Below are positions 11,718 to 28,074 of a stretch of DNA of 64,000 bases, piece by piece. The position numbers were made by a program, and so were the translations under genes. The stretch is from Hygrocybe punicea (taxonomy: Eukaryota; Basidiomycota; Agaricomycetes; Agaricales; Hygrophoraceae): positions 992,001-1,056,000 of the forward strand of contig OY744466.1 in NCBI GenBank assembly GCA_963556145.1. Direction: 5' to 3'. The first letter of the stretch is position 1. Every line of letters begins with the position of its first letter. A model generated the notes under the pieces. That model did not search any database, had not been told where the DNA came from, and was given only the letters and a program-made list of their open reading frames with translations.

Positions 11718-11846
11718 GTAAGCTGGGGCTTGAGCTGGAGCTGAGCTGAAGCCGTTCCTGAGCAATGGCTCAGCTTGGCTCAGCTAGCCAAAAAAGAACA
11801 AGCTGGTGATAGCCAAGCTGGAGCTGAGCCGAGCTGAGCTGTGGCC
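11718..11846. repeat. AGCT-rich tract, right
   Basis: A run of overlapping AGCTGAGC/GAGCTGG words forms an inverted counterpart of the tract at 10094-10206. It abuts the left end of the 16-kb KDZ element, so that element may have landed beside or inside it. Confidence 0.45.
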
Positions 11847-11857
11847 ACATCATGCTG

Positions 11858-12790
11858 TGACTTATCCCGTGTCAGACCGGCCAACCCAGGTTGACAATGT
11901 TACATTTGGGACGGGCCAGCTAATCTGGGCTGACAAAATAATATTGTCAGGTACCTGATGGGGCAACTCAAGAATGTCATAGTGCTGGTGTTAGATGGGT
12001 GGGCTGAAGAATAGTGTTATCCATGTGAGACCATTGGGCCGAAGTTCTATGGGGGAATCATTACCAATATGAGACCGATGGGCCGAGGTTCTGCTGGGGT
12101 ATTGTTACCCATCTTAGACCGTTGGGCCGAGTTGCTTTGGAAGTATTGTTACCCATCTCAGACCGTTGGGCTGTGTTTCTTTGGAAGTATTGTTACCCGT
12201 CTCAGACCGTTGGGCCGTGTTTCTTCGGAAGTATTGTTACCCGTCTCAGACCGTTGGGCTGAGGTTCTATGGGGGTATTGTTACCCATCTCAGACCGTTG
12301 GGCCGTGTTTCTTCGGAAGTATTGTTACCCATCTCAGACCGTTGGGCCGAGTTTCTGCTGGGGTATTGTTACCCATCTCAGACCGTTGGGCTGAGGTTCT
12401 ATGGGGGTATTGTTACCCGTCTCAGACCGTTGGGCCGAGTTTCTGCTGGGGTATTGTTACCTGTCTCAGACCGTTGGGCCGAGGTTCACAATAATAATAA
12501 TATTCAATGGCTGACAATTGGACAAACACCCCTCCAAATTTCGTCCAGCCTCGGTGTCTCAGCAAGAGCATAAACATCATCTTCAGCAAGGAAATCGGCG
12601 TTGGATCGGCATTGGCGTTGGCATCGGTGTTGGCACCAGCCTCGACCTCGGCTTATGTTTGACCACGTTCTGACATGTTTTGGATTGTGGACTCAGTGCC
12701 CAACTTGGGAAAGAGCCTTTGCATAGGGTGACTGCATATAGAGCATTGTGAATGAATCTCCCGTTCTCGAACAAGATTTTGCACTGGCCT
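11858..12790. repeat. Left terminal inverted repeat of KDZ element
   Basis: It matches 26380-27995 in reverse complement. The outer ~150 bp is unique sequence. Next come about 11 tandem ~45-bp units (12010-12490) around 'ctcagaccgttgggccg' and 'gtattgttaccc'. A (TAA)n-containing spacer follows ('cacaataataataatattca'), and finally an inner ~300 bp that resembles the right side near 26380-26520 ('gcctttgcatagggtgactg' region). The arrays stay open in several frames because the unit is a multiple of three; these frames are not genes. Confidence 0.85.
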
Positions 12791-13019
12791 CGGCCTCGGC
12801 ATATGTTTGACCACGTTCTGAACCCACTCAGTTGGGTGGTCTTGCACTGAGTACATCCATAGTATTTTACGTACAACTTGTTGTCGCAGTAGCCAATTAT
12901 GGGCACGTCAGAATACGCATCACCATCGGAATACACATCGTTATCGGCATTCAGCATAACACTCTTCTGATATGGAATGGATAACTTGATGTCATGAATA
13001 CTTTGTACAATATTATAAT

Positions 13020-13994
13020 TTGATCTAGTATACATTTTCTAAATCGGTGATTGACTTGTCAAGGCTCAACATTGTGTTCAAGTTCTTCTCCAGCACCAGC
13101 TTCAGCCTCGATGTCTCCCATGCGCAGATCTTTAAGTCCTGACAGACATCTTCTTTTTGCTGTTGAACCCAGAACGCATCTTTTGATGGATGCAGTCTTT
13201 CGAAATGCTCGTACTTCCTGCTCCGTTTTGGTAGCCAATTTCGGCAACTCCGATTTTGGCATTGATCATCGGCATTCTGCCGGTTTGTCCGTTCTGGCTC
13301 CTCGAATGATGCTGAGGCTGTATGTAATGCGGATAAACATGGATAAGAATAACTGAGGGTCCACTTACTGATCGAGCACCTGACACCATCCACTTGCATA
13401 TTATTGTCCTCACGTTTGGCAGGGTTGTCGAACTGAAAGACAAAATGATCTGATGTTGTTTCAGTTGTAACTCAGGATCATGATGGTTCAAATAAATACG
13501 ACATACTCCTCGACAACGTTGGTAATGACCGTCTCATTCGACCGCTTTCATCAACATCGGCATCGGCCTGGTCAATGGGAACGAGACCAAATTTGGGATG
13601 TTCTACCCCTTTTGGTTGTTCCACAATCATCACTGACAATGAAGCGGGACCTGTGGATCCCGTAATGAATCTGTTTGAATTTCAATAGTTATGCCAAGTG
13701 AGACCTACTACTACTGGGCCTGGCAATGGGCAAAACCACCCCGCGATTGGAGGGCCCCGCAATGGGACGATTCGGTGATTCGATTGGGAAAGGAAGTGGC
13801 GCTGCAAATATCGGTGGTGTGGGTGTCGTAGCCGAGATATTGTCGGTGTTTGTGAATGGGATGTCCGGGACCTCGGTGGCAAGTTGTGGTGTCGTAAACG
13901 TAAACAACATTGCTGTTTCACAATTCAGGCTGGTATTTTCAATGAAAAATGAACTCTTACCAGGTAAGAGGGGCAATTCCCGAAGCGATTTCAT
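13020..13994 (-). CDS. Uncharacterised KDZ-element gene (minus strand, exons approximate)
   Basis: I do not recognise this gene. Coding-like sequence runs on the minus strand from an ATG at about 13994. The first exon (to about 13720) is rich in Pro, Ser and Thr. After a possible intron near 13683-13720, a second stretch reads 'SVMIVEQPKGVEHPKFGLVP' and then 'DQADADVDESGRMRRSLP'. The Asp-Ala repeat is the protein reading of a GCCGAT minisatellite found across this element. The 3' part (13400-13020) has three competing frames, one ending in an acidic 'GDIEAEAGAGEELEHN' tail. Its place just inside the left inverted repeat suggests cargo of the transposon. Exon boundaries are uncertain. Confidence 0.4.
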
Positions 13995-14321
13995 TGCCGG
14001 TTGCTCTAAGGAACAAAGGTCAATAAAACCTCATAAATTGATGTGTTAGATTACCTACTCTTCAGGATCACTAAATTTCATGATTACTTTCTCAATAAAT
14101 GTGTTTTTGGGCACATGAAGCTGCTCACCTTTGGACCGGGCCATTTTTCAGTCGTTGCCTTTGACTTTGGGTGGGTTAAATTGTCCTCAAGACCGATGAG
14201 TCAATGTTTGTTTGTTTGCTTGAACAAATACCATAATAAGATTATAAATTCGGGTGGCCACACCGATTTTTTCAAAACGACAAACAGTATCCTGAACTCA
14301 ATCACCGTCTCTGCATTCGCC

Positions 14322-16376
14322 ATGTCCAGCACCTCCTACACCCCGAATCTGTCCGCCGAAGACTTCCAGAATCGACTGTATGCAATAAATGCTCGACTCG
14401 CTATCGCTTTACCCTTGATGCCAGGCGAAAACGATCCCGTTCGGTGGGACCACTTTATATACAATATTACTCAGGATGTGGTAAGTTAGTTCACTCATCA
14501 ATGGTTTGCCTTTAATTTAATGATGTTTTGCAAAGCGTTCGGTGGTGGAGCTTTATCAAGCATCACAGCGTGCCGGTTTCCGTATCCACATACCTAGGCT
14601 GTTAATAAGTGCAGCCAGGGAGTATCAGGAACATTATGCCCCGCCGACTGAATTACCAAGGTTCCAACACATTCGGAGGAATGATCCGAGCAATGTCAAG
14701 GATCCAGCCTATGTACCCAGATGGAGCATGCCGGAATTTATGGCGTACGGGCTTTGCCATTCATGGTGGACCAACCGGTTCGGTGAGGGTTTCTTCGACT
14801 GCTCTTTCACCATGCAAACTGGTCTGTGTGACTGACGGATCGGTGGTTCCACATAGTGAAATGTGAACCGAAAGACGTGCAAATCCCGATGATGACGCAT
14901 CCAAAGTTGCCGGTGAACACCAGGAAGGGGAAGGAGACGGGGAAGGGGAAGGGGAAGGGGAAGGGGAAGGGGAAGGGGAAGGGGAAGGGGAAGGGGAAGG
15001 GGAAGGGGAAGGGGAAAGCCAGGGAAGAGTCTGAGATGGAGGAGGATGAGGATGAAGCTGATGACCAGGATGTCGATGTGAAGGAGGAGTCTGAGGACGA
15101 CGACGACTTGCTGGTTTCAGGGACATTGAAACGCCAAGGTCGAGCCGTACCAAAGGGTCGGCAGGCGAAGAAGACAAAATGGGCGATTGACAAGAGTCTG
15201 CTTGCACAAGACCAAGTGAGTAGTTTACATTTTTGACATCAAGTCCATTCAACTAATGTATCTCTCAGTGTTGCAAAAGATGCCGCGACCGATGGCCGAC
15301 TTATACCTGCATCAAAGGCAAGGTCACCGCTTGTACTGAATGTCACCGGGCGAAAGTCAAGTGCATTTGGCCAGAAGATGATGAATGGTCTGGCGTTGGG
15401 ACAGCCGGCCCGAGCCAGAAGAAGTTGAAGACGGTACCAAAGCAAGCACCGGCACCGAGTTGCAAGACCATCCGAAAGGTGACATTGAAGTTGACAATGC
15501 CAGTGGTCCAAGGTCCGGGGCCAAACGCAACTCCATCTATGATGGATATTCGGCCCAAAAAAGCAACCATCCATACACCGAGCCTGAGCCCGAGTTTGAC
15601 ACCAATAAGCTCCCCACTCTCCCCAATCCCTTCTGAACTGCCATCACCAGCGCTTGCTCCCCCTCGTAAACGGGACCAGTTGAAGAAAGCCAAAGGGAAG
15701 GGCAAAGAGGTGGTGAAGGATGGCGAGAAGTCAGCGAAATTGCATATACCGGTTGGATGTAAGCACTTTATTCCTTGTTTTACGATTAATTGACTCGTGG
15801 TGCCTATGTGTAGCTACCGTATACCCATTGGTTTTCCATCCTCAAAGGATGGACGTGCTCGGTGAAATGAGCAGCACCGATGAGCTGGTTAGTGATTGGC
15901 TGGCACTCAGGGCCAGGGTACAAGCATTGGAGGATATGAATGGTGATAGGCTGGCGCTCAGGGCCAAGGTACAGGCATTGGAGGCCGAGGTGCGAGGGTT
16001 GAAATTGATGATGGAGACATTCTGGGTTACGATGAGTCGAGGTCCGCGACATGATTCGGAATCGAACCCACTCCTGATGGAAGAGATGCCGCACCCGGAG
16101 GAGTACGATCCCATTCCCATTCCCATGTGGTTAGCGAGTTGCCCGCATGACCTCCCAGCAGTACGGCAGCAATCCTGGCCGGGCTCCAGCAATGTTCGGC
16201 ACAATTCGGCCCCACAAGAATCTTCGGCCACCGGGGCATCTAGGTCATCGTTGAAAAGAGACCGGTCGACCATAACGCCATTGGTGCCCATTGGGGATGT
16301 CATTAGGTCCCCATTTTTAAAATCTCCATCAAAATCACCAGGGAAGATCCCTGCATCAACCGAATTCTTGTCCTGA
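14322..16376 (+). CDS. Zinc-cluster, coiled-coil DNA-binding-like protein of the KDZ element
   Basis: Five exons join in phase: 14322-14480, 14536-14782, 14857-15215, 15269-15758 and 15814-16376, giving about 605 residues with all introns GT-AG. Residues ~161-190 are a Gly-Lys run encoded by a GGGGAA microsatellite, followed by a strongly acidic stretch. Near residues 256-290 lies a cysteine cluster, C-C-x2-C-x9-C-x7-C-x2-C-x6-C, containing 'CTECHRAKVKC', like fungal Zn2Cys6-type or related zinc clusters. Residues ~430-490 have Leu heptads ('LALRAKVQALEAEVRGLKL'), a likely dimerising coiled coil. The tail is basic and Ser-rich. A nuclear DNA-binding role, perhaps binding the terminal arrays, is inference. 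No disabling mutation is seen. Confidence 0.7.
14939..15016. repeat. GGGGAA microsatellite, about 13 copies, in coding exon
   Basis: A perfect hexanucleotide run inside exon 3 of the zinc-cluster gene encodes Gly-Lys repeats. Length change in six-base steps would keep the frame. Confidence 0.9.
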
Positions 16377-16494
16377 GCTGTATGTGTTTTTACATATATA
16401 TATTCATGTACATAGTAATATTTGGTTGTGATATACCCACATAACGATAGTCTCTGAAGATAAATGTGCTAATATCAACACCAATATAATCGTC

Positions 16495-16800
16495 AAGTCC
16501 AACGCCGATTGCAGCACCGAGAGTTCCACGCCGTGGTCAACGCTGAGTGCAACACCGAGAAGTCCACAACGAGAATTCCATGGCGAGGGAAACGCCGAAT
16601 GGAACGCCGAGCTCAACGCCGCACTCAACACCAAAATCAGCGCCAAAATCAACGCCAAAATCAGCCTGAGAATTCCAAACGCCGATTTTCACATCGAGGC
16701 CAACACCGACTCAATGCCGAGGTCAATACCGATGTCAACACCAATGTCAACACACATGTCATCACCGATGTCAACGCCGAGGTAAATGCCGAGGGTCAGA
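16495..16800. repeat. Degenerate AACGCCGA minisatellite
   Basis: A ~10-14 bp unit ('gtcaacgccgatg' and variants) is repeated more than 15 times between the convergent zinc-cluster gene and the minus-strand gene at 16920. The same word family recurs at 18335-18400, 20340-20395, 21357-21490 and 26515-26765, all inside the KDZ element. Confidence 0.7.
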
Positions 16801-16919
16801 GCCATGATTAAGGTCATCGTCAATGTCGAGGTGATAACAATGTTGTAGCTACCACTGCCTGACTAGTTCTAATGAAGCATACATTTCTAGCTGATGATTA
16901 CTGAACCACTTGCAAGTGT

Positions 16920-19290
16920 TTACCGGGTCTTTTTCCTGGGGCTTCTCCATCCTTTGACATCCTTGCTCATGCCTGATGATTTGTCCCCGACCTTTCTTTT
17001 CTTCTTCTCTTCATCTCCAGAATAACCAGAGGCCTTCCGTTTCAATGAAGTCAACCTAGAAGTTAGCTCGGTGCATACTGATAACAGCCTAGGCCGAATT
17101 TCCGGAAATTTGAGCTTTGTATTCAAGATGAAATCTTCGACAGCAACATTCATTGTTGCAGGATCTGGTTCATCGCTGACAAACTGCCAAAGCCACATGT
17201 CGTGACTCAGGAGGCCGATGCTGAGCAAAACTCCCTCGATGTAATATCGGCTCCGACATGTCCCATCCGATTTGAGATATGGACCTTGCTCCAACCATTG
17301 CAGGTATGTGTTAGCTGCTGAGACTGAGGAATGGATAGTTTTCAGAGCAGTCATTTTTTTATACTTTCAAGTCACCCAAGACGGTGTCGTTTTCGGGAGT
17401 GGTGCCGGCCTATCATCGTCCTAAGTCAAATGTCACATCGGTCAACTCAGAATTCACATTACATAAAAATCACTCACAGGAAGTTTATTTAAAGCTTGTA
17501 AACTGGCCTGATACTCGACATCATCTGATAACGAACACAGGTACCGGAACCTGTCTTCGGGATCATCAATGTCTGGTAGTCTCAATGGTGTTGCAGCAGT
17601 AGGAATATCCTTTGCAGGGACGTCATTCACATCTTCATGGTAAACGCTCCGTTCATCTCCATCACATTTGTCGTCAGATGGGAAATCCTCATAGGCCTTC
17701 CCCTTCCCTTTCCCCTTGTCCCTGTTTTTTCGTCTCGGAGGTGACTTCGTAGTAGTATCAGATGATGAATCCGATTCGGAGTCATCATCGGATTCGTCAA
17801 CTTCACTTGAACGTCGTGTTGGCTTTGATGTTGACCCTCGTTGCCCGCTGAGATTAGAGGCGGGAGATTTGTCGACCTGGCCATTTTTTCCTTTGAAGCC
17901 CCGGAATTCCAATGTCATCTTGACCTTCTTATCGTCCTGTCTCTTGTACCAGAATTCCAGCAGAGCGGTTGCATTTTGTTTCGTTAGTTTTGATGGATCT
18001 CGAAGTTGAAACCCAGCCGGCAAAAACTCCCTTGATATGTATTCGTCCTGATGCTGGCCGATGTCACCCCAAGGCACCGATGCCGAGCTATCACCGGACC
18101 GTATCTCTGTAGCTATGTGAATGATGATTTCTATGATGGCAAAATGACTTACGGTAATGGCAGTTAACGAAGTCCCGGATCAACGTCTTCATTTCATCCA
18201 GGTTGGGTCTGCTCATCCCTGAGAATGCTGGTAGTCTCAGAATACCCTTGTCATCTAAGTGGACCTTTGGCTTTTTGGCCGAAACCGTTTCTCGTTCACC
18301 ATCATTATCCCGGTCATCCAAATTTCCTGTGGTGACATGCCGATGCTGATGACAATGCCGATGCCGATGACAATGCCGATGCCGATAACAATACCAATAA
18401 GATGACCATGTCAATTCAGATCGTACCAGTAGGTAAACTTTATACTCACCCAGTTCCTCGGATGCATATGATTCCCACTCGGTCATCACTGAGCCGTTCT
18501 GCCAATTGGGTTTAGATTTGATGAATGACCTGTTCCCAAGCTCGTCATTGAAGTCATGCCTGTTTTGACACATGTATAAGTCACTGGTTAATGGGTCGAA
18601 AGCAACTGCATACGAAGAAACCAGGACATTCCCTGACATATCGTGAAAGGCTGAGAGCACAAAGACTCTCATGCCGAGATTCCGGTGCATCTGTTCGGCA
18701 AAGTCTCTGATGTATTTCACGGCGTGTTTGGTAGCATTTCTAGTGACATCAGACAACACATCATGTTCAGTGTGCTAAGGACCCACTTTTGTTGGACTCT
18801 TGTGGGAGGTGATCTTGAGTTCCACTCCTCCTTCAATCCCTCATAGTTCTTGAGCTCCTTTTCGGTCAACTGTTCATAAACGGCTTGAAGCCCAGCCTGA
18901 TACTTCGCCATCCAGTCCTTGGAACCTGGAGTTGAATTGGAGAGCTCAGTGACTTTGTCATCTACCTCATCCTTTCTCTCATGAGCTACAACTTTCTTGA
19001 CTGTCCATTTTGTTACATAGTTATGCGTCGGCTTCCGAGTATTTCGATGTCCATTGTTGTAATACCACTCCTTTATTTTCTACAGATGGCCGTGAGCATA
19101 TTTAGGATGCTATGAATGTTTTACTGGCCATATATTCCAAGGGGGACTCAGACCTCCCTTGTGCACCAACAATCTTTTGATGTACCTCTCTCATGATCTT
19201 AACTCGGTCTTTTTTGGCTGCCGCCTGAAAATCTTCAAGTTGGCTTTTGAGCATAGAGAGTTGCTGGGTGGTAAATGTTGTTTCAGGCAT
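16920..19290 (-). CDS. Conserved Agaricomycete mobile-element-associated protein
   Basis: A multi-exon minus-strand gene starts at the ATG at 19290. Coding blocks in order are a helical N-terminus (~19290-19130), then 'KEWYYNNGHRNTRKP' and 'VKKVVAHERKDEV' (~19070-18960), then 'GSKDWMAKYQAGLQAVYEQL' and 'YEGLKEEWNSRSPP' (~18930-18800). These are followed by a block with 'YIRDFAEQMHRNLGMRVFVL' (~18720-18640), 'SELTWSSYWY' (~18430-18390), an acidic/basic low-complexity region (~17860-17690) and a Lys-rich C-terminus ending at 16920. I recognise the block order from abundant, unnamed proteins of mushroom genomes linked to transposons; I know no biochemical function. An intron near 18340-18400 contains the GCCGAT repeat. 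It is divergent from the transposase gene across a duplicated promoter region. Confidence 0.6.
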
Positions 19291-19329
19291 ATTTGTAGCA
19301 GGAGATGATGTGTGGGATGTGTGGGAGGA

Positions 19330-19692
19330 ATTATAGGTAGCAAGTGGTTGACTTTCCCAATTTTGACTACACCCTATTTGAGTATTGGGACTTCATTTTG
19401 ATGCTCCTATATTAGCTTCCTCACCACTTCTAGTCTCTACAACTTATTTGTGGAATTTTAACCGTCCCATTTTCTGTCCGGAACTCACTTAATTGACTTT
19501 TGCTCAAGTGTCATTATAGGTAGCAAGTGGTCGACTTTCCCAATTTTGACTATACTCTATTTGAGTATTGGGACCTGACTTAAATTGATTTTGACGGTCC
19601 TATATTAGCTTCCTCACCACTTTTAGTCTCTACAACTCATTTTTGGAATTCTAACCGTGCCATTTTCTGTGTCTAACTTTTGGTCCAGTGTC
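19330..19692. repeat. Tandem 183-bp duplication in a divergent promoter
   Basis: Two direct copies, 19330-19512 and 19513-19692, both start ATTATAGGTAGCAAGTGGT and share 'gagtattggga' and 'ctatattagcttcctcacc' at equal spacing. They fill most of the gap between the minus-strand gene starting at 19290 and the KDZ transposase gene starting at 19715. They could carry regulatory sites for both genes. Confidence 0.85.
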
Positions 19693-19714
19693 ATCTATCT
19701 CACTCATTGCAGTC

Positions 19715-22700
19715 ATGGTGAAGTCATTCAAAAGGAAGTCTGCTCCTCGTGTCAGCAGGGTGGCATTGAGAGAGGTATTCACCAGCCGTGGATTTCAGAC
19801 CCGAAGACAAGTTGTCCACACCCCTAGCTGCTCGAGTTCATCTCCTAGAAAAACACCAAGGACATCCCAACTTCAAGAAGAGAATGACTTGACCGGAGAC
19901 TTTCATGAATTTGTCCCAAATATTGAGCCTTTAAGAATGCCAGCCAGTAATGTAAATATTATATTGTATTCCAATACTCTAGACTGACAATGACATTTTG
20001 GAGTCATCGAACAATTACATGAAAGAATGGTTGTCCCATCGACCCGAGTATTTAGATTGTATTCTTGCTAGGGAGGCTCAACCAGACAATCAGGCCTGTC
20101 TGAGTTGTTCAATGGCTGAAGGCACATGGAAATGCACGACATGTTTTGGTAACCCAATCTATTGCCAACAATGTTGTGCCGACGTTCATCGAAGGCTACC
20201 ATTCCATTGGGTGGAAAGATGGACAGGGACCTACTTTGCTCCAGCATGGTTGATTGAAATTGGGGTCAAGCTCCACCTGGGTCATGGAGGGTTGGAATGC
20301 CCATCTGTGGAACATTCTGAGGGGTTTAACACTCTTGGAAATGACACCGATGATGACGACAATGCTGACGCCGACGCCGATGCCGACGATGAATGTGACA
20401 CCGAATACACATCGCTGACATTCCAAGGCTTCCCTACCACACCGAACGTCACCGACCAATCGGCTGAAATCATAATGGTAGTGGTAGACAGCTCAGGGAT
20501 CCATCGGCTGGCTGTAAGATGGTGTCAATGTAGTGCCGCTGCTCGGCCCGATTGTCAGCTGCTCGATATCGGCTTATACCTGGCCACATCAAAAAAACCC
20601 CGAACCGCATTTACATTCCAAGTCCTGGATGAATTCCTGATTGACAACTTGGAATGTAAAACGGCCTGCCAGACGTTCCACTCCAAACCGCTCCGTCTGA
20701 CATGTTCACAATTCCCACATACTGTCCCGGTATGTTATATTATTTGAGCCATCGACCTTGTTCAATTAACAAATACATATATACATAGATTCGTTACCGC
20801 GAATTGCTAAGGGTGACATGACAATGGAGAAATCTGAAGGCCTGGAAGTGGAACGGATTGGGCCATCGAAGTGCTCATGAACCTGGGCCCGGACAACTGA
20901 TGGTGACTTGTCCAGCATGTCCGATGCCTGGTGTCAATCTCCCCGATGACTGGAAACCGAAGGAGGAGGATGATGGGATCATCCTCCCAACATTCGTGAT
21001 GGATGGAAATTTCAAAGCCGACCACATGAAGATGCGTCAACCCCTCGATGACATCGCAATCTCCGATGGTCATGGGTTTATGGTTGGGGACAAGAGATAT
21101 ATACAGCACATCAAGGCATCAAAGGAAGTGAAAAGTGTAAGTTTAAGATTGGCGGTTCGATCTTGTTAAGATGTTGAAAGCCTGAACCTTGATAGAAGTC
21201 GACATGCAATGAACATCGGGCGGTTAATCAAGCTAACACCCGAAAACAACATTTGGATATTACTGGCATCAGTGCAGTCGCTTGTGCACATCATGGATGC
21301 TTTGTTCCACACTCCGTGGTTAACTTTCAAAAGGGTGAAAGGTGTGTGAATCATGTGTGCCGATGCCGATGTCATCACCTATGCCTCTGTTCATGCTGCT
21401 GCCAATGCCGATGCCGCTACTGGTGCCGATGCTGATGCCAATGCCGATGCTACATTGACTTCCGATGCTCCTTCTGATGCTAACATGACATGTCATCCAG
21501 ACACATGAACATGGACTATGCAGTCTCAGAAGCACTTAAATATGCATCTGGTTTCAAACAAGTCTTGCTCATCTATGATGTGATGTGCCAATATGGGAAA
21601 TACCTGACCGAGAGATTGACTGAAGGGTCCTATCTGGAGATGCCCGAGGATTTACATATCAAGAAGGCAATCGGCTTGTTTCACATAATGGGACATCAGG
21701 ACCCTTGCTACCCTCGATACAGCCCTCAGTTTATAGAAGGGGCAGGCCAGGTCGATGGGGAAATTTTGGAAACATTATGGTCTCCATTTGACAATATTGC
21801 CAGGAGCACCAGGACTATGACAGCAGCATCCCATCAGGAAATGATCGACGGACATATGAACGACTCAAATTTTAAGAAACTGATCAGAATTGGTTTGTAA
21901 AATGTTGTCATTGTCGGTGATTGCGGCTAACGAAAATCTCAGTGTCGACACTGAGGAAAAAATTTCACAAAGCCACCATCGGGTTAGACAGCAGCCGTTG
22001 TGCACTGGATGAGCTCAAGTCAACAGCGGACAGAAACCTTATTCGGAAGTGGACACAAGAGGAGCAAAGAGCCCAAAAGAACCGAGAACATGACGAGATG
22101 GCGATGGATTTATACGATGCAAAAATAAGCAAAGGTATTCATTTGACATCCAATTGAACAATTTCTGAACTTGTGTCTCAGGTCCGACCAAGGAGGAAAC
22201 AATGTTGGAGTTAACCGTCCGTGAAAAGACCGATGGTCTGGTGAACTGCACTATCGCATGGTTATCCAATGGAGTGAAAATTGAAGAATCACAGTAGGTG
22301 AAATTCTATAAGGAGAGCGCTGAAATTGACCTCTATTGATTTGTACAGAATGTCATTGGCCGATGAAGAGAGAAAACTTGGCCGTAACCCCGGAGCGTCG
22401 GCGTTGCTATCGATGGAGGAAAAAAGATGCCGATTGTCGAACAAAATCACCCGTTTCAACAAATTGTCATCGAAATTTATGGATTCATGTATGAACAACG
22501 AGGATTCAGATTTGACATCAGACACCGATAGATCGGACGATGCAGACAATACTGAACCGGATGTTGAAGACAGTGCTGATGAGGGGGATGACAGCGACAA
22601 TCCTTTTATCAGCTGCCAAAGACAGAGGTACTCTGATGACCGTTCCCCAATCTATACAAAGTTGTGTCTCCCTTCCAACCTCTGTCGATCGGCAGTCACA

Positions 22701-23421
22701 AGCTCTGGGAACAAATTACTTTTTGCGGAATTGAAATTGCGAGAAAGCCAGGCCGCAAACGCTCTCTATCAAATCCGAATATATCTTGGTCACAAAGCGT
22801 TCTTGTTTCGGAAAAACGTTCGACTCGCGGCGGGGACTAAGCAAAAAACAAGAGCATGGAAAGAAGTTTATTCGGTGGAAGCCCAGGTAAGGCACCATGC
22901 ACGGGTTTATCGCTTGGCTCAAAGAACCATGGTTCGCCTTGGAGCATCAAAAGAGATGCTGGCAACCTACCAGTTGCTCCGGAGTGATCAACTCAATGCA
23001 ACAACCGCATTATTGGATCCAAAACAACCGGGGCAACGGAATAGAGCGCTGGCATGGTTTTGGAACATGGATGTCGACCGAGATGTGGCTGGTAATGGAT
23101 GGATGGAAGAATGTAAGCTATCTTTGCGATTTCATGATCCTAAATCTGAAATGACTGGTGCTAGTCTATCGGGTGCATTGGCTCAGGACAAATGTGAATT
23201 TCAGCCGCTGGAAAGAGGAATTTGACAGGGTCAAGCAAGAAATGCGGTGGACTATTCACACATTCAAGAAAAAAGCTGATGAGTGGAGGACTCTTAAGGA
23301 CTCGGTGACCGGCCTTGGAGCAAAAGGAAAACAATGTTATGCTGCAAGGCAGGTGGCTCTATGGGAACAATTCACCACCCAAGCACAGAAGTCATTCGAA
23401 ATTTGTCTAAAACATATATAG
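19715..23421 (+). pseudogene. KDZ transposase with CxC2-like cysteine cluster, one stop
   Basis: The gene starts at the ATG at 19715 with a basic N-terminus. The next exon holds a CxC2-like cluster near 20085-20260 (C-x2-C-x7-C-x2-C-x6-C-x2-C, with 'CQQCCADVHRRLPFHW'). Later exons carry the conserved KDZ core: 'VTCPACPMPGVNLP' (~20900), 'STCNEHRAVNQAN' (~21198), 'AVACAHHGCFVPHSVV' (~21285), 'LLIYDVMCQYGKY' (~21565), 'GAGQVDGEILETLW' (~21740) and 'HMNDSNFKKLI' (~21855). The C-terminal helical region includes 'RGQRNRALAWFWNMDV'. Good introns include 20730-20788, 21138-21197, 21342-21498 and 23114-23165. TGA at 20819-20821 (Arg CGA expected from family context) truncates it. The first intron would be only 31 nt. 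Confidence 0.85.
21347..21498. repeat. GCCGATG minisatellite inside a transposase intron
   Basis: The intron between '...NFQKGER' and 'HMNMDYAV...' is mostly degenerate GCCGATGC units. The intron begins GTGTGTGAA and ends at an AG before the ACACATGAACATGG exon. It is the same repeat family found elsewhere in this element. Confidence 0.75.
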
Positions 23422-23711
23422 AAAATCTGCCAAATATACGTGTCTCCGTGATGCCGTTCAGCAATGTCCCCACCAAATAGAACGTCGGCGCCGAGCTGCA
23501 GTGGCTTTACAACAGAAAATCGGGGCCCATTTGCAAGGGTGTCCTCAACATGTCTCATAAGCGACTGGCATAACAAGATATCGTTATTAGTGTATTAGTG
23601 AGCCTGGCTAGTGACATCTTTCAGAATCGGTGCCGATTGAGTGATACAGTCTATGAAAATTTCAAACACAGATAAATAAAACATTCATCATTGACCTATA
23701 CCGGCTTTCTT

Positions 23712-24880
23712 ATGGCACAAACACGGGAATGTCAACACCTCCTGAATCTCCTTGGACGCCGAGTTAAAATGGCGACATGGGCGTTGATAGCCGATTGGGA
23801 TGAGCTGACCATTGAGCAGCGGACAAGATGGGAATCGAACATGCAGTCAGAAATAGTGAGTTCATTGATTTAATGCTAGCTCTGTCTGCTAAAACAATTT
23901 ACACTTTCTTGTGCAGGCAGCAGCCATGGTCGCCATCGGCACTGCGCAAATTGCCAGAATCAGATTGGAAATCCCGGATGTGATTCGAGAAACAGCTAAA
24001 TCGCTGTATCGACATGCTCTGCCATATTTATGGAAGGATGTTTCTGAACAAGACCTCCCAATCGACACATTGCCCCCTGCCTTTGTCGTCAAACATCTGG
24101 ATGGTGGGCATTGGTGGGAGGAAGAGAAAGGATCGGTCCCCGAGGAACCGGGACGCATTCTGATCTCCTTTGCGGGATACTTTGCAGCGGTGACCATGAT
24201 GCAGGTATTATTTGTTGTTCTCTGCTTTCCATATTCCAGAGTTGAATCATGGACAGCCTGAAACAGCCCTTGCCTTTCGAATGGCATATGCATCGACTTT
24301 GGGCGGGTTATCAGAGGAGCCGCCCCAACTTTGGGAGGTGAGGTTTGCCTGCGAGAAATCCATGACAGCTGCTCATTCATGAGTCAATTGAAAGGCCCTC
24401 GACAACATCAAAGATCAGGTTCTCGATATGCCGAATGTTGCCACCAGGCCATCAAGCCCAACGAGCGGTCCATTAAGTCAGTCAAGCAGTCCATGTAGGA
24501 ATGGATTGCCCCTCATTGAAACATTGTCGGATCGTCAAACATTGGCATTGGCATCGGCGTCCAGTGCTGAGATGGATGTCGACGAATTGGACAGCACCAG
24601 CTTAGATAACACCTCGATGTCAACTGACAAAGGCAAGGGGTGAGAAGAGAGGCTTGAAGATCGGTGGGGTCTTCAACCTGCTTCTTTATCGTCAGCGTTT
24701 ATCGAAAGTCTGTCTGTCAAGCAAAACGCCGAACTTCGGCGTTATCTTGGGACGCTCCGAGCGGAGATGGAAACCAGCTACACGCTGATTCAAAGGCAGG
24801 CTTTCGAAAAAATAGATGACGCGAAGCTGTTGAGCATGAGGTGGAAGACTCTGGACGAAATACATCGTCGGTTGGCATAG
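23712..24880 (+). pseudogene. Uncharacterised KDZ-element gene, one stop
   Basis: The model starts at the ATG at 23712. Exon 1 (23712-23855) has 'WDELTIEQRTRWESNM'. Exon 2 begins at 23917 and includes 'LWKDVSEQDLPIDTLPPAFV' and 'PGRILISFAGYFAAV'. Small introns follow near 24206-24240 and 24341-24398, then a Ser/Pro-rich region and a C-terminal helical part, 'ELRRYLGTLRAEMETSYTLI', to the stop at 24878-24880. A TGA at 24641-24643 interrupts the frame, and coding resumes in the same frame, so a CGA-to-TGA change is likely. I do not recognise the family. It sits in tandem behind the transposase, converges on the TET/JBP gene, and is probably part of the element's gene set. Confidence 0.55.
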
Positions 24881-24964
24881 GTCTGATCAGTGTTATCCTA
24901 TATGTATGCTCTTCTGTAGTATTTGTCCAGTATTATTATAAAGAACAAGTAAAGAACAAGTAAT

Positions 24965-26335
24965 TCAGCTAATGGGCAGGTAAAAAGAATTCTTTATGTG
25001 ATCAACAGTCATCCATGATGCTGCCTGCACCCCTACTCGCTCATGCACGTTATCTCTCATATAAAATGCAAGGCAAACACAATCACCATCCGTCCGACAA
25101 ACCCCGTGTCTTAAAAGTTGTCCACTGAGATGGACAAGTGTACCTGAATTGTACTGTAATCTAATGCCGATGTTCGACAAGTCCAGAACGGCTTCCTTGT
25201 ACGGCCCGATTGTCGCCAAAATGTCATACCACTCCGCACGTGAATTGTTGTCCCGATGTGTTGGTGTTTCTTGATTGCTTATCACCGACATCCCATTACA
25301 CGCCGAGGACCATCGGCTCAGGACATCGGAGAGTTCGGCATTGGATTCCAAACGCCGAAGTGTCTCTCGGCCACACTTGTACAATTCGGGGTGTGTAATG
25401 GAAAGAGTTGCTGATATGAGTGCGATCGATTCACTTGCAGCATCTAGCCAGGCCCTTCCACTGGCTTTGGCATTCGTGTCATTCAAGGCTGAGGAAACCA
25501 CAATGGGTTCATTTTGCATCTGCATTCATATATATTCAGCTATTGCCATGTCTTCAATGATAATAATTACATCGTGTCCTTGTTGAAACCAAGCAGGAGA
25601 AAGCTCAACTGTGCCTGGCATTATCCAACCGAATTGAGTGTTAGCCTGAAATAATGCTGGATCGGTCCTCCAGTTCTTCTTCGCGGCACTTGACATGCTT
25701 CGAGACAACAATTTGTTCATATGCTTTAGCGATTCGGCAATGATAGCCTGTTAACGTAATTTGAATTCGGAGGTGTCAGTCATGGCAAACCACATACTTG
25801 TCGAGTCGGTGTCAACGCATCGGGCAGATACCAGCAAAGGATACGTCCGTGGCGATCGCAAACACTTAGCGGAGTGTTTACCATTCGTGGGGGATTCCAG
25901 AGCAAGGGATGTCGGCGCATTAGAGCAGCCTCCTTTGTCGCGTTGAAGCCCGTCGGCTTTTGACCCAATCATGATGAATATCGGTCGGCATCCCATTCCA
26001 ATGTAACTAAAGTCGAATTCAGTAGAAGATTTACTGCAGAAATGAGCAGCAATATTAATACCGTGATTTTGGTATGCCAATACCAATCTATCAATCAACA
26101 GCTCACAATCACATATTAATTGAGTGCTGAAGTCCATCAGTGGTAAGATGCACCCCATGGATGCCCTGTGTGGGCTGATACATTGACCAAATCTTTGGCC
26201 GAGGTACATGGATATTCTGTCGGTGAAGTCGGCAATGGATCCCGATCGAAAAGAGTGGCTCATTGTGTAGGGGCAGGGAATGAAGGTTATGAATGAAATT
26301 AATATTACCCATTTGGGAGTTATATCTTTATACAA
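24965..26335 (-). CDS. TET/JBP-family 2-oxoglutarate/Fe(II) dioxygenase
   Basis: This is predicted to oxidise 5-methylcytosine (or a related modified base) in DNA using Fe(II) and 2-oxoglutarate. The last two introns are clear, 25748-25797 (50 nt) and 25520-25570 (51 nt), and exons 25571-25747 and 24965-25519 join in phase. Upstream, 25968-25798 encodes 'SVCDRHGRILCWYLPDALTP', a block typical of fungal TET/JBP proteins. The final exon holds the H-x-D iron motif ('THRDNNSRAEWYD', ~25270-25230), 'GTLVHLSGQLLRHGV' with the distal His, and 'GDCVCLAFYMRDNVHERVGV'. The catalytic exon has no stop or missing ligand. The N-terminal exons (26335-25968) show two overlapping frames, so an intron or frameshift there is unresolved. 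It lies just inside the right inverted repeat. Confidence 0.8.
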
Positions 26336-26379
26336 TATGAATAATTAAAAGTCAACCATGGTTCAAACGAACGAGATTC

Positions 26380-27995
26380 TGCAAAATCTTTTTAGAGATC
26401 GGGAGATTGATTTACAATGCTCTATATGCAGTTGCCCTATGCAAAGGCTCTTTCCCAAGTTCGGCACTTAGTCCACAAACCAAAACAGGTCAGAACGTGG
26501 TCAAACATAAGCCAACACCGAGGTGAATGCCGATGCCGCTGTCAGCGCCGATGCCGATGCCAGCGCTGATGATCTTGCCAGCGCCAATTTCGCTGCCAAC
26601 GCCGATGCCGTATGCAACACCGACGCCGGTTGCAACGCCGACGCCGTGTGCAACGCCGATGCCGTTTGCAACGCTGACATTGATGCCAACGCCGATGCCG
26701 ATCAAACGCCGATGACGTTCAAACGCCGATGACGTTCAAATGCTGATGCCGCTGACAACGCCGATTTCATTGCTGAAGATGATGTTTATGCTCTTGCTGA
26801 GACACCGAGGCTGGACGAAATTTGGAGGGGTGTTTGTCCAATTGTCAGCCAATGAATATTATTATTATTGTGAACCTCGGCCCAACGGTCTGAGACAGGT
26901 AACAATACTCCTGAAGAACCTCGGCCAAACGGTCTAAGACGGGTAACAATACCCCAGCAGAAACACGGCCCAACGGTCTGAGACGGGTAACAATACTCCC
27001 GAAGAAACTTGGCCGAACGGTCTGAGACGGTTAACAATACTCCTGCAGAAACACGGCCCAACGGTCTAAGACGGGTAACAATACCCCAGCAGAAACACGG
27101 CCCAACGGTCTGAGACGGGTAACAATACTTCCGAAGAAACTCGGCCGAACGGTCTGAGACGGTTAACAATACTCCCGCAGAAACACGGCCCAACGGTCTA
27201 AGACGGGTAACAATACCCCAGCAGAAACACGGTCCAACAGTCTGAGATGGGTAACAATACTTCCGAAGAACCTTGGCCCAACGGTCTGAGACGGGTAACA
27301 ATCCTCCCGAAGAAACTTGGCCGAATGGTCTGAGACGGTTAACAATACTCCTGCAGAAACACGGCCCAACGGTCTAAGACGGGTAACAATACCCCAGCAG
27401 AAACACGGCCCAACGGTCTGAGACGGGTAACAATACTTCCGAAGAAACTCGGCCGAACGGTCTGAGACGGTTAACAATACTCCCGCAGAAACACGGCCCA
27501 ACGGTCTAAGACGGGTAACAATACCCCAGCAGAAACACGGTCCAACAGTCTGAGACGGGTAACAATACTTCCAAAGAACCTTGGCCCAACGGTCTGAGAC
27601 GGGTAACAATACTCCCGAAGAAACTTGGCCGAATGGTCTGAGACAGTTAACAATACTCCTGCAGAAACACGGCCCAACGGTCTAAGATGGGTAACAATAC
27701 CCCAGCAGAAACACGGCCCAACGGTCTGAGATGGGTAACAATACCCCAGCAGAACTTCGGCCCATCGGTCTCATATGGGTAACGTTTCCCCCATAGAACT
27801 TCGGCCCAACAGTCTCACATGAATAACACTATTCTGGCTCAAACCTCGGCCCACCCATCTAACACCATAACTATGACATTCCTGAGTTGCGCTGTCAAGT
27901 ACCTAACAATAAGCTTTTCTCGGCCCAGATCGGCTGGCCCATCTCAAACGTAACATTGTCAACCTTAGTTGCCCGGTCAGACACGGGATAAGTCA
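26380..27995. repeat. Right terminal inverted repeat of KDZ element
   Basis: This is the reverse complement of the left end but longer. It contains about 20 tandem ~45-bp units (26873-27800) against about 11 on the left. Two or three subtypes alternate ('agcagaaacacggccc', 'gaagaaacttggccg'), giving a higher-order period. The inner part holds a GCCGATGCCGA array at 26515-26765. Frames of 171 and 148 residues through the array are repeat artefacts. Confidence 0.85.
26515..26765. repeat. GCCGATGCC minisatellite next to right TIR
   Basis: Roughly 15 or more degenerate copies of a 12-15 bp unit (for example 'aacgccgatgccg') form an uninterrupted array. It is translatable in several frames as Ala/Asp or Met/Pro repeats, with no other coding signal. 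Confidence 0.8.
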
Positions 27996-28074
27996 TGTCA
28001 TGGGCTGCTGTGGCAACACTATTTCGGGTTATGCTGGGGCAGGCCTCAACCTCAACATTGACCTACAAAACATT

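What the first reader, a model, noticed from the sequence alone, without database searches (positions are those of the whole stretch)
11858..27995. A 16-kb KDZ transposon carrying its own TET/JBP dioxygenase and four cargo genes
Inverted ends of 0.9 and 1.6 kb enclose a KDZ transposase, a predicted 5-methylcytosine oxidase and four further genes arranged on both strands. KDZ-TET/JBP linkage in basidiomycetes is known. The full gene set with a zinc-cluster/coiled-coil protein and two orphan proteins looks like a defined module that could use base oxidation to escape or exploit DNA methylation.
Basis: partly seen in the sequence, partly recalled or inferred. Interest (0 to 1): 0.88.

Follow-up and report, generated by a model that had tools for sequence, protein, structure and literature searches.

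The report
Fungal transposon carrying a TET enzyme
This is a real 16-kb jumping gene in a fungus that carries its own enzyme of the kind that oxidises methylated DNA, plus companion genes that travel with it; the general kind is already published, but the larger gene set and its CpG-bearing repeat arrays make its suspected escape from host silencing testable.

Summary
One mobile element, not two. Its ends lie 12 bp further out than reported: w11846-28007 (16,162 bp), flanked by a perfect 7-bp duplication, CTGTGGC. Of 15 end pairs from this genome, each joining an A-type and a B-type end, 11 have perfect 7-bp duplications; 0 of 210 mismatched pairings reach even 6 of 7. Seven paralogues of the interrupted repeat run through the insertion point. 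Seven-bp duplications, CA..TG termini, a KDZ transposase and an AG-type TET/JBP domain match published TET+ Kyakuja elements (PMC12730594): the kind is known. Beyond that account: three further genes keep order and orientation with TET at other loci, and a 44-bp CpG-bearing array lies at 55 of 58 fetched end loci, including short copies without detected genes. The 'orphan' gene's N-terminal domain has 75 distant relatives here, 52 within 20 kb of other TET genes. Escape from methylation is not shown: 273 of 366 differences between two copies are CpG transitions, and repeats without TET show a CpG bias too. Best reading: autonomous TET+ Kyakuja variant; anti-silencing role plausible, untested.

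The parts
11839..11845 (.). target-site duplication, left copy (CTGTGGC)
   Evidence: identical to w28008-28014; present once, with 1-2 substitutions, in 7 of 7 paralogues of the flanking repeat that were fetched
11846..12014 (+). A-type end: CACATCATGCTGTGACTTATCCC..., inverted repeat of the B-type end from its 13th base inward
12015..12487 (+). left array of a 44-bp unit, 10.8 copies
12875..13994 (-). left gene (spliced model, borders approximate; no Pfam match)
14196..16376 (+). zinc-cluster-like / coiled-coil gene (spliced model; cysteine-rich stretch at the start of exon w15269-15758; both names by eye, no zinc-cluster Pfam match)
16920..19290 (-). 'orphan' companion gene (spliced model of 683 residues); its N-terminal domain exon w18787-19079 has distant relatives near other TET genes
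20019..23404 (+). KDZ transposase gene with CxC2 domain (spliced model; 3' end uncertain)
23889..24383 (.). unresolved open reading frame, possible sixth gene
24965..26263 (-). TET/JBP dioxygenase gene (spliced model); Tet_JBP match at w25055-25447; H-x-D kept, Ser at the CcTET Gly331 position, Asp at the Asp337 position
26878..27783 (-). right array of the 44-bp unit, 20.6 copies
27784..28007 (-). B-type end (read inward: CAGCCCATGACATGACTTATCC...)
28008..28014 (.). target-site duplication, right copy (CTGTGGC)

Best explanation
An autonomous DNA transposon of the KDZ superfamily, Kyakuja type, encoding an AG-type TET/JBP dioxygenase and at least three further genes. Shown: it has moved as a unit with CA..TG termini and makes 7-bp duplications; each of the 15 end pairs compared joins an A-type and a B-type end; a 44-bp array lies at 55 of 58 fetched end loci; matches to the left, zinc-cluster, companion and TET genes keep order and orientation at other loci; some copies are internally deleted or contain none of the genes searched for. 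Inferred: the KDZ transposase, perhaps with an accessory protein, binds ends and arrays and inserts the element; derivatives move in trans; the host methylates CpG in the element (from the mutation spectrum); TET oxidises 5mC, perhaps also 6mA, on element DNA long enough for expression or for transposase binding, as proposed for this class in PMC12730594; copies nevertheless decay by CpG mutation afterwards. The confidence given is for identity; I put the anti-silencing role at about 0.5.
For: Ends, duplications and A/B pairing (15 pairs that I chose as inward-facing neighbours with both ends fetched; 11 perfect). Paralogues of the interrupted repeat: 7 fetched and aligned through the junction; 15 of 16 non-self matches of the joined flanks pass the junction by 7 or more bases. 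C3 copy: parts of all five genes colinear, 12.66 kb aligned in w12600-26400 with 366 differences. C2 copy: perfect duplication, KDZ and TET kept in damaged form, w12443-18778 missing. Co-location: zinc-cluster to companion 12 of 13 loci (random mean 0.10, max 2), companion to family TET 10 of 14 (0.21, max 3), relative strand constant. KDZ and CxC2. TET domain 58.2 bits; its only two PDB hits are CcTet sequences, 7vpn/8jkk, E 3.5e-20. Arrays at 55 of 58 end loci.
Against: No expression, methylation or biochemical data. CpG transitions make up 273 of 366 differences and run 26-47 times faster than other C/G transitions, so the family is not visibly protected. dN/dS is confounded by CpG decay and rests on home-made models; Zn gives 1.21, no sign of constraint. 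The exon segments of the window copy are open by choice, since models were built from open frames; one segment of the KDZ 3' part, read in the frame of its first base, has stops in the window copy too. KDZ position was checked only in the window, C2 and C3 copies, and for C8:3756914 and C1:2800053 from the list. No transposase tree. PMC12730594 reports no TIRs for two Laccaria Kyakuja families; here inverted repeats start 13 bp in. Three of 58 end loci fail the array test.
Confidence: 0.9

Rival explanations
1. Two different elements, or an accidental cluster of transposon genes, happen to lie between unrelated inverted repeats.
Against: Perfect duplication and paralogues without the insert; a copy on another contig with parts of all five genes in the same order; co-location with constant orientation.
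Confidence: 0.02
2. The TET enzyme does not lift silencing; it writes oxidised cytosines that stay as a repressive or targeting mark (self-limitation, tolerance by the host, or marking of targets).
For: In Laccaria and Coprinopsis high 5hmC/5fC goes with silenced genes and transposons (passages of PMC8889193). Copies here are strongly CpG-decayed, and the share of CpG transitions (75%) is not below that in LINE copies (41-66%).
Against: 5 of 12 near-full-length TET copies of the family have no stop in the matched frame, which suggests fairly recent use; a pure self-silencing gene would be hard to keep (inference).
Confidence: 0.25
3. The companion, zinc-cluster and left genes are passengers, captured once and hitch-hiking; only KDZ and the ends matter.
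For: Deletion derivatives and copies without detected genes exist; Zn dN/dS 1.21; the zinc-cluster query found only 16 rows, merging to 13 loci, 12 of them with the companion nearby, so it is not general to TET elements here.
Against: The companion domain recurs near TET genes of other families (52 of 75); the order Zn-companion-TET is also seen at two diverged loci, C36:2781008-2801388 (Zn 48%, companion 78%, TET 78% identity) and C35:2101529-2136240 (44%, 89%, 79%).
Confidence: 0.3

Closest known systems
TET+ Kyakuja DNA transposons (Kojima 2025, PMC12730594; main text read, most of the reference list not; earlier Iyer 2014, not held, recalled only)
   Same: 7-bp duplications, 5'-CA..TG-3' termini, KDZ transposase, AG-type TET with Asp at the CcTET Asp337 position and Ser or Gly at Gly331.
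   Different: Long imperfect inverted repeats from the 13th base inward, CpG-bearing 44-bp arrays at both ends, and at least three further genes in conserved order. The paper reports no TIRs for two Laccaria families and, in the parts read, no such gene set for Kyakuja; it does report extra genes in other TET+ transposons (alpha-kinase in IS3EU, a third protein in PHISTA).
KDZ elements of Marasmius oreades (PMC8290104, passages seen)
   Same: KDZ elements, including Kyakuja, in a mushroom; the authors say they characterised a TIR motif of KDZ and Plavaka elements.
   Different: Motifs are in a supplement that I did not see, so whether Kyakuja ends there resemble these is unknown; the one 'TET' match in that text is a reference title.
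VANDAL/VANC anti-silencing transposons of Arabidopsis (PMC10398659, abstract and passages seen)
   Same: DNA transposon coding for accessory proteins; noncoding tandem repeats in the element; counter-silencing (shown there, only supposed here).
   Different: The passages describe sequence-specific binding proteins, with no dioxygenase; binding of any protein to the 44-bp arrays is untested here; analogy, no common descent claimed.
Zisupton and Dileera (other KDZ lineages; PMC12730594)
   Same: KDZ transposase group; TET genes in some.
   Different: 8-bp duplications, against 7 bp here.

Membership tests
TET+ Kyakuja | 7-bp target-site duplication | tested here: met
   11 of 15 pairs perfect, others 6, 5, 5 and 4 of 7; mismatched pairings: 0 of 210 at 6 or 7, 3 at 5
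TET+ Kyakuja | 5'-CA..TG-3' termini | tested here: met
   the 15 left-hand starts printed begin with CA; the right-hand ends match the A or B motif (both begin CA read inward) at 29-33 of 33 bases; window right end read
TET+ Kyakuja | KDZ transposase inside the element | tested here: met
   PF18758 positions 5-217 of 217, E 8.4e-40, with CxC2, E 1.7e-19, on the spliced model
TET+ Kyakuja | AG-type TET/JBP with H-x-D, Gly or Ser at 331 and Asp at 337 (CcTET numbering) | tested here: met
   read from the alignment to CcTet 7vpn/8jkk; meaning of the positions from PMC12730594
TET+ Kyakuja | no terminal inverted repeats (described for two Laccaria families; not stated as a defining feature) | tested here: inconclusive
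   outermost 12 bp agree at 6 of 12; from the 13th base inward they are long inverted repeats
TET+ Kyakuja | transposase falls in the Kyakuja clade | not tested
   no named reference transposases at hand; no tree built
Zisupton / Dileera | 8-bp target-site duplication | tested here: not met
   7-bp duplications
KDZ-TET elements with a divergent HMG protein (recalled from the Iyer 2014 abstract; paper not held) | companion protein is an HMG-box relative | tested here: inconclusive
VANC-like sequence-directed anti-silencing | element-encoded protein binds tandem repeats of the element and removes methylation there | not testable with these tools
   arrays exist at 55 of 58 end loci; binding and methylation need experiments

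The most novel reading that the evidence does not exclude
The element carries a complete, self-addressed demethylation system: one or more of its companion proteins (zinc-cluster, companion or left gene product) bind the CpG-bearing 44-bp arrays at both ends and bring the TET enzyme there, so that methylated ends become readable for the transposase. It would be a fungal, enzyme-based counterpart of the plant VANC system, and would explain why arrays stay at ends of short copies without detected genes and why the companion domain recurs beside distant TET genes.
Probability: 0.15. Interest if true: 0.85.

Novelty: new variant of a known kind. Interest (0 to 1): 0.45.

Why it matters
Why fungal transposons carry TET enzymes is open: PMC12730594 states that the function has not been validated by experiment. 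This family offers a test set within one genome: copies whose TET frame is open, copies whose TET is broken, and short copies without detected genes, with the same A and B ends and mostly the same CpG-bearing arrays. Mapping 5mC, 5hmC and 5fC on these ends would tell removal from marking. The companion gene, whose N-terminal domain is found beside many other TET genes here, is a concrete candidate partner. The mutation spectrum also shows strong repeat decay at CpG in this genome, in the TET+ family as well as in repeats without TET.

Tried and rejected
Two-element or chance explanation: set aside because of duplications, uninterrupted paralogues and a second colinear copy. Escape from CpG decay: looked for in the mutation spectrum, not supported. 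The element has CpG o/e 0.80 against 0.10-0.53 in the 2-kb bins of w28001-60000, but the LINE region w1-10000 has 0.55-0.86, and age explains the contrast as well as protection does. Control repeats: four LINE copies, 39-60 CpG transitions among 80-143 differences per pair (41-66%), polarised CpG to other C/G ratios of about 4, 13, 67 and 9 on only 24-29 CpG positions; hAT-like flank copies, 41 of 43 differences, all against the one window copy over about 50 bases, so not independent. HMG identity of the companion: inconclusive. Homologues of the full companion model in the protein collection: none at E<=0.001 among 4,583 candidates, a weak test because candidates must be of similar length. 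N-domain searches failed twice on the server. The search with the CxC2 exon found 22 proteins, most without a telling name, and gave no Kyakuja/Zisupton classification. Iyer 2014 could not be opened. Searches for prior print: (one library); none of the listed titles and abstract starts describes this gene set, which does not show that it is unpublished. dN/dS against C3 and C2: companion 0.44 and 0.34 (the second on 7 changes), TET 0.64 and 0.56, KDZ 0.65 and 0.81, left 0.36, Zn 1.21 (both C3 only).
Full report
What was checked. The window is G000:C8:992001-1056000 of an unnamed 92.2-Mb assembly in 42 contigs. Inverted repeats enclose w11858-27995 as reported. Both arms carry a tandem array of a 44-bp unit, 10.8 copies left and 20.6 right, which explains most of the difference between arms of 0.9 and 1.6 kb.

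True ends. Searching the genome with 157 bp of the left end and 162 bp of the right end gave 40 scored matches each, of 80 and 86 candidates, so both lists are lower bounds. Aligning the outer edges showed that similarity goes on 12 bp outwards: the left end starts CACATCATGCTG (A-type), the right end, read inward, CAGCCCATGACA (B-type). The element is w11846-28007, 16,162 bp, and both flanks carry CTGTGGC.

Duplications and paralogues without the insert. I took 15 pairs of inward-facing neighbouring ends for which both loci had been fetched; other ends in the lists had no such partner. Each pair has one A and one B end. Duplications of 7 bp are perfect in 11 of 15; the others have 6, 5, 5 and 4 of 7. 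Among 210 mismatched pairings none reached 6 and three reached 5, so the three weakest pairs are not supported by this alone. The window copy sits in another repeat, 7 bp from that repeat's edge. Of 16 non-self matches of the joined flanks, 15 pass the junction by 7 to 9 bases. Seven were fetched, and all seven run through it without a gap; their target 7-mer differs from CTGTGGC at one or two positions, and only 7 or 8 bases of right flank are tested, because the repeat ends there. Together with the duplication this shows that the unit has moved and that the two ends belong together.

Genes. Spliced models came from a home-made script, so borders are approximate. KDZ transposase, plus strand, with CxC2, and PF18758 over positions 5-217 of 217. 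Tet_JBP, minus strand, at w25055-25447. Its only two PDB hits are CcTet sequences (7vpn, 8jkk), E 3.5e-20. In that alignment H-x-D is kept, Asp stands at the Asp337 position and Ser at Gly331; the meaning of these positions comes from PMC12730594. Three further genes have no convincing Pfam match: a left gene (minus), a zinc-cluster-like/coiled-coil gene (plus; names by eye) and a companion of 683 residues (minus). Weak Pfam rows on the zinc-cluster model (EBNA2_Core, E 8.4e-6; astrovirus capsid, E 0.0059; both below their cut-offs) fall on or beside its low-complexity stretch and were set aside. A sixth ORF at w23889-24383 is unresolved: its minus frame is open in all three copies compared, its plus frame has a stop in two. 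Of 18 segments read, 17 are open in the window copy; this is by choice, as they were picked as open frames. The exception is w23165-23404 at the 3' side of KDZ, read in the frame of its first base.

Other copies. The C3 copy (2945717-2962623) has parts of all five genes in the same order: over w12600-26400, 12.66 kb align with 366 differences; the long blocks are 94.8-96.5% identical. It lacks w13819-14923, part of the left and zinc-cluster genes; insertions of about 1.0 and 1.5 kb interrupt its zinc-cluster and KDZ exons, and several frames carry stops. Its flanks agree at 5 of 7. Its interior is inverted relative to its ends, alone among ten copies compared by coordinates (window, C2, C3, C6, C7, C8:3745641, C33, C36:1637066, C36:2353051, C39); recombination between the inverted arrays is the likely cause (inference). 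The C2 copy (4774395-4783352) has a perfect duplication, lacks w12443-18778, and keeps KDZ and TET with stops and a small deletion.

Co-location. Exon queries gave 18 rows for the companion, 16 for the zinc-cluster gene, 110 for TET and 52 for the left gene. Split rows were merged by hand to 14, 13 and 20 loci for companion, zinc-cluster and left gene; for TET I kept the 19 rows at 77% identity or more, 15 loci. Zinc-cluster to companion within 25 kb: 12 of 13 (1000 random placements: mean 0.10, maximum 2; C1:2741896 and C1:2762760 share one companion). Companion to family TET within 45 kb: 10 of 14 (mean 0.21, maximum 3). Zinc-cluster to family TET: 9 of 13 (mean 0.18, maximum 4). Zinc-cluster to left gene: 11 of 13 (mean 0.14, maximum 2). 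Relative strand is constant in every case, direction in all but one. Exceptions: three companion loci without a zinc-cluster gene, one zinc-cluster locus without companion, four companion and four zinc-cluster loci without family TET, and 10 of 20 left-gene loci without a zinc-cluster gene. Distances of 30-41 kb at C35 and C1 would need nested insertions.

Derivatives and arrays. Seven of the 15 pairs are 3.5-5.3 kb apart and contain no match; KDZ absence is less sure. Two pairs on C40 (10.5 and 14 kb) also contain none of these and were not read. The array test was met at 31 of 31 chosen end loci (2 to 21 units). Over all 58 end loci fetched, some ends twice, 55 carry the family array: one end (C39:832815, fetched twice) has none, and L075 has a 2.2-unit array that failed the motif filter. 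Arrays at short copies suggest a cis role, such as binding of transposase or an accessory protein (inference).

A companion shared with other TET families. The companion's N-terminal domain (w18787-19079) gave 104 rows. Of the 75 distant ones (21-36% identity), 52 lie within 20 kb of one of 87 TET matches outside this family (the four weakest rows left out); 50 of 52 are on opposite strands; random placement gives a mean of 2.8 and a maximum of 9. Of the 52, 31 fall in two narrow spacings, 24 at 7.4-8.4 kb and 7 at 10.9-11.3 kb. So it is no orphan. It may be the 'divergent HMG' protein that I recall from the abstract of Iyer 2014 (not held); tests stayed inconclusive.

Methylation footprint. 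CpG o/e is 0.80 in the element, 0.10-0.53 in the 2-kb bins of w28001-60000, 0.30 in w10001-12000, but 0.55-0.86 in w1-10000 and 0.95-0.99 in w60001-64000. Between the window copy and C3, 273 of 366 differences are CpG transitions. Polarised over the region shared by three copies, transitions hit 30 of 383 CpG positions in the window copy, 54 of 427 in C3 and 43 of 403 in C2, against 8 of 2656, 8 of 2654 and 6 of 2645 other C/G positions: 26 to 47 times. Methylated CpG, or a CpG-directed mutation process, would leave this. Repeats without TET are biased too: LINE pairs have 41-66% CpG transitions, and the flanking hAT-like repeats 41 of 43 differences. LINE copies are older and the sample is small, so rates cannot be ranked. 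Nothing here shows that the TET+ family is spared.

Comparison with print. PMC12730594 (main text read, most references not) reports TET+ Kyakuja with 7-bp duplications and CA..TG termini, without TIRs in two Laccaria families, and says that function is not validated. The element meets all four features that could be tested clearly. Differences: long inverted repeats inside the 12-bp outer ends, the arrays and the gene set. PMC8290104 (passages) mentions a TIR motif of KDZ and Plavaka elements in Marasmius, in a supplement not seen, so inverted ends may not be new for KDZ. Passages of PMC8889193 link high 5hmC/5fC to silenced genes and transposons, for the marking rival. Passages of PMC10398659 describe VANC proteins binding tandem repeats of their own transposon; this is analogy, not kinship.

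Verdict. A real, bounded, multi-copy element; a gene-rich variant of a published kind. Identity 0.9; anti-silencing through TET perhaps 0.5; self-addressing through the arrays a bold guess at 0.15.

Noticed in passing
w121-8106: Two tandem, diverged LINE-like elements (CCHC-type and reverse-transcriptase-like ORFs, named by eye from recalled motifs); many relatives at 66-91% identity in the genome.
   Followed up: partly
w62002-63764, minus strand: ORFs that look like a heavy-metal P-type ATPase (motif recalled, no family search run), probably a host gene; CpG o/e 0.95-0.99 in w60001-64000.
   Followed up: no
L080+L081 (G000:C3:2945717-2962623): Interior inverted relative to the A and B ends, alone among ten copies compared by coordinates; likely recombination between the inverted arrays.
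   Followed up: partly
w11596-11845 and w28015-28021: The target is another repeat whose edge reads TAGTGTTGCC inward, hAT-like by resemblance (recalled); the element sits 7 bp from that edge.
   Followed up: partly
G000:C40:5103190-5113680 and C40:5333303-5347382: Two copies of 10.5 and 14 kb with A and B ends but no match to the genes searched; contents unknown.
   Followed up: no
L072 (bases 1087-1488) and L069 (bases 1723-2082): The 3.5-kb C1 element has a different tandem repeat of 44-bp period outside both of its ends.
   Followed up: no
G000:C36:2353051 and C36:2359908: Two B-type ends and two TET matches about 6.9 kb apart in the same orientation: looks like a partial tandem duplication.
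   Followed up: no
w36865-37683 and w46521-47291, minus strand: Protein-kinase-like ORFs in the CpG-poor region (by eye, no family search run).
   Followed up: no
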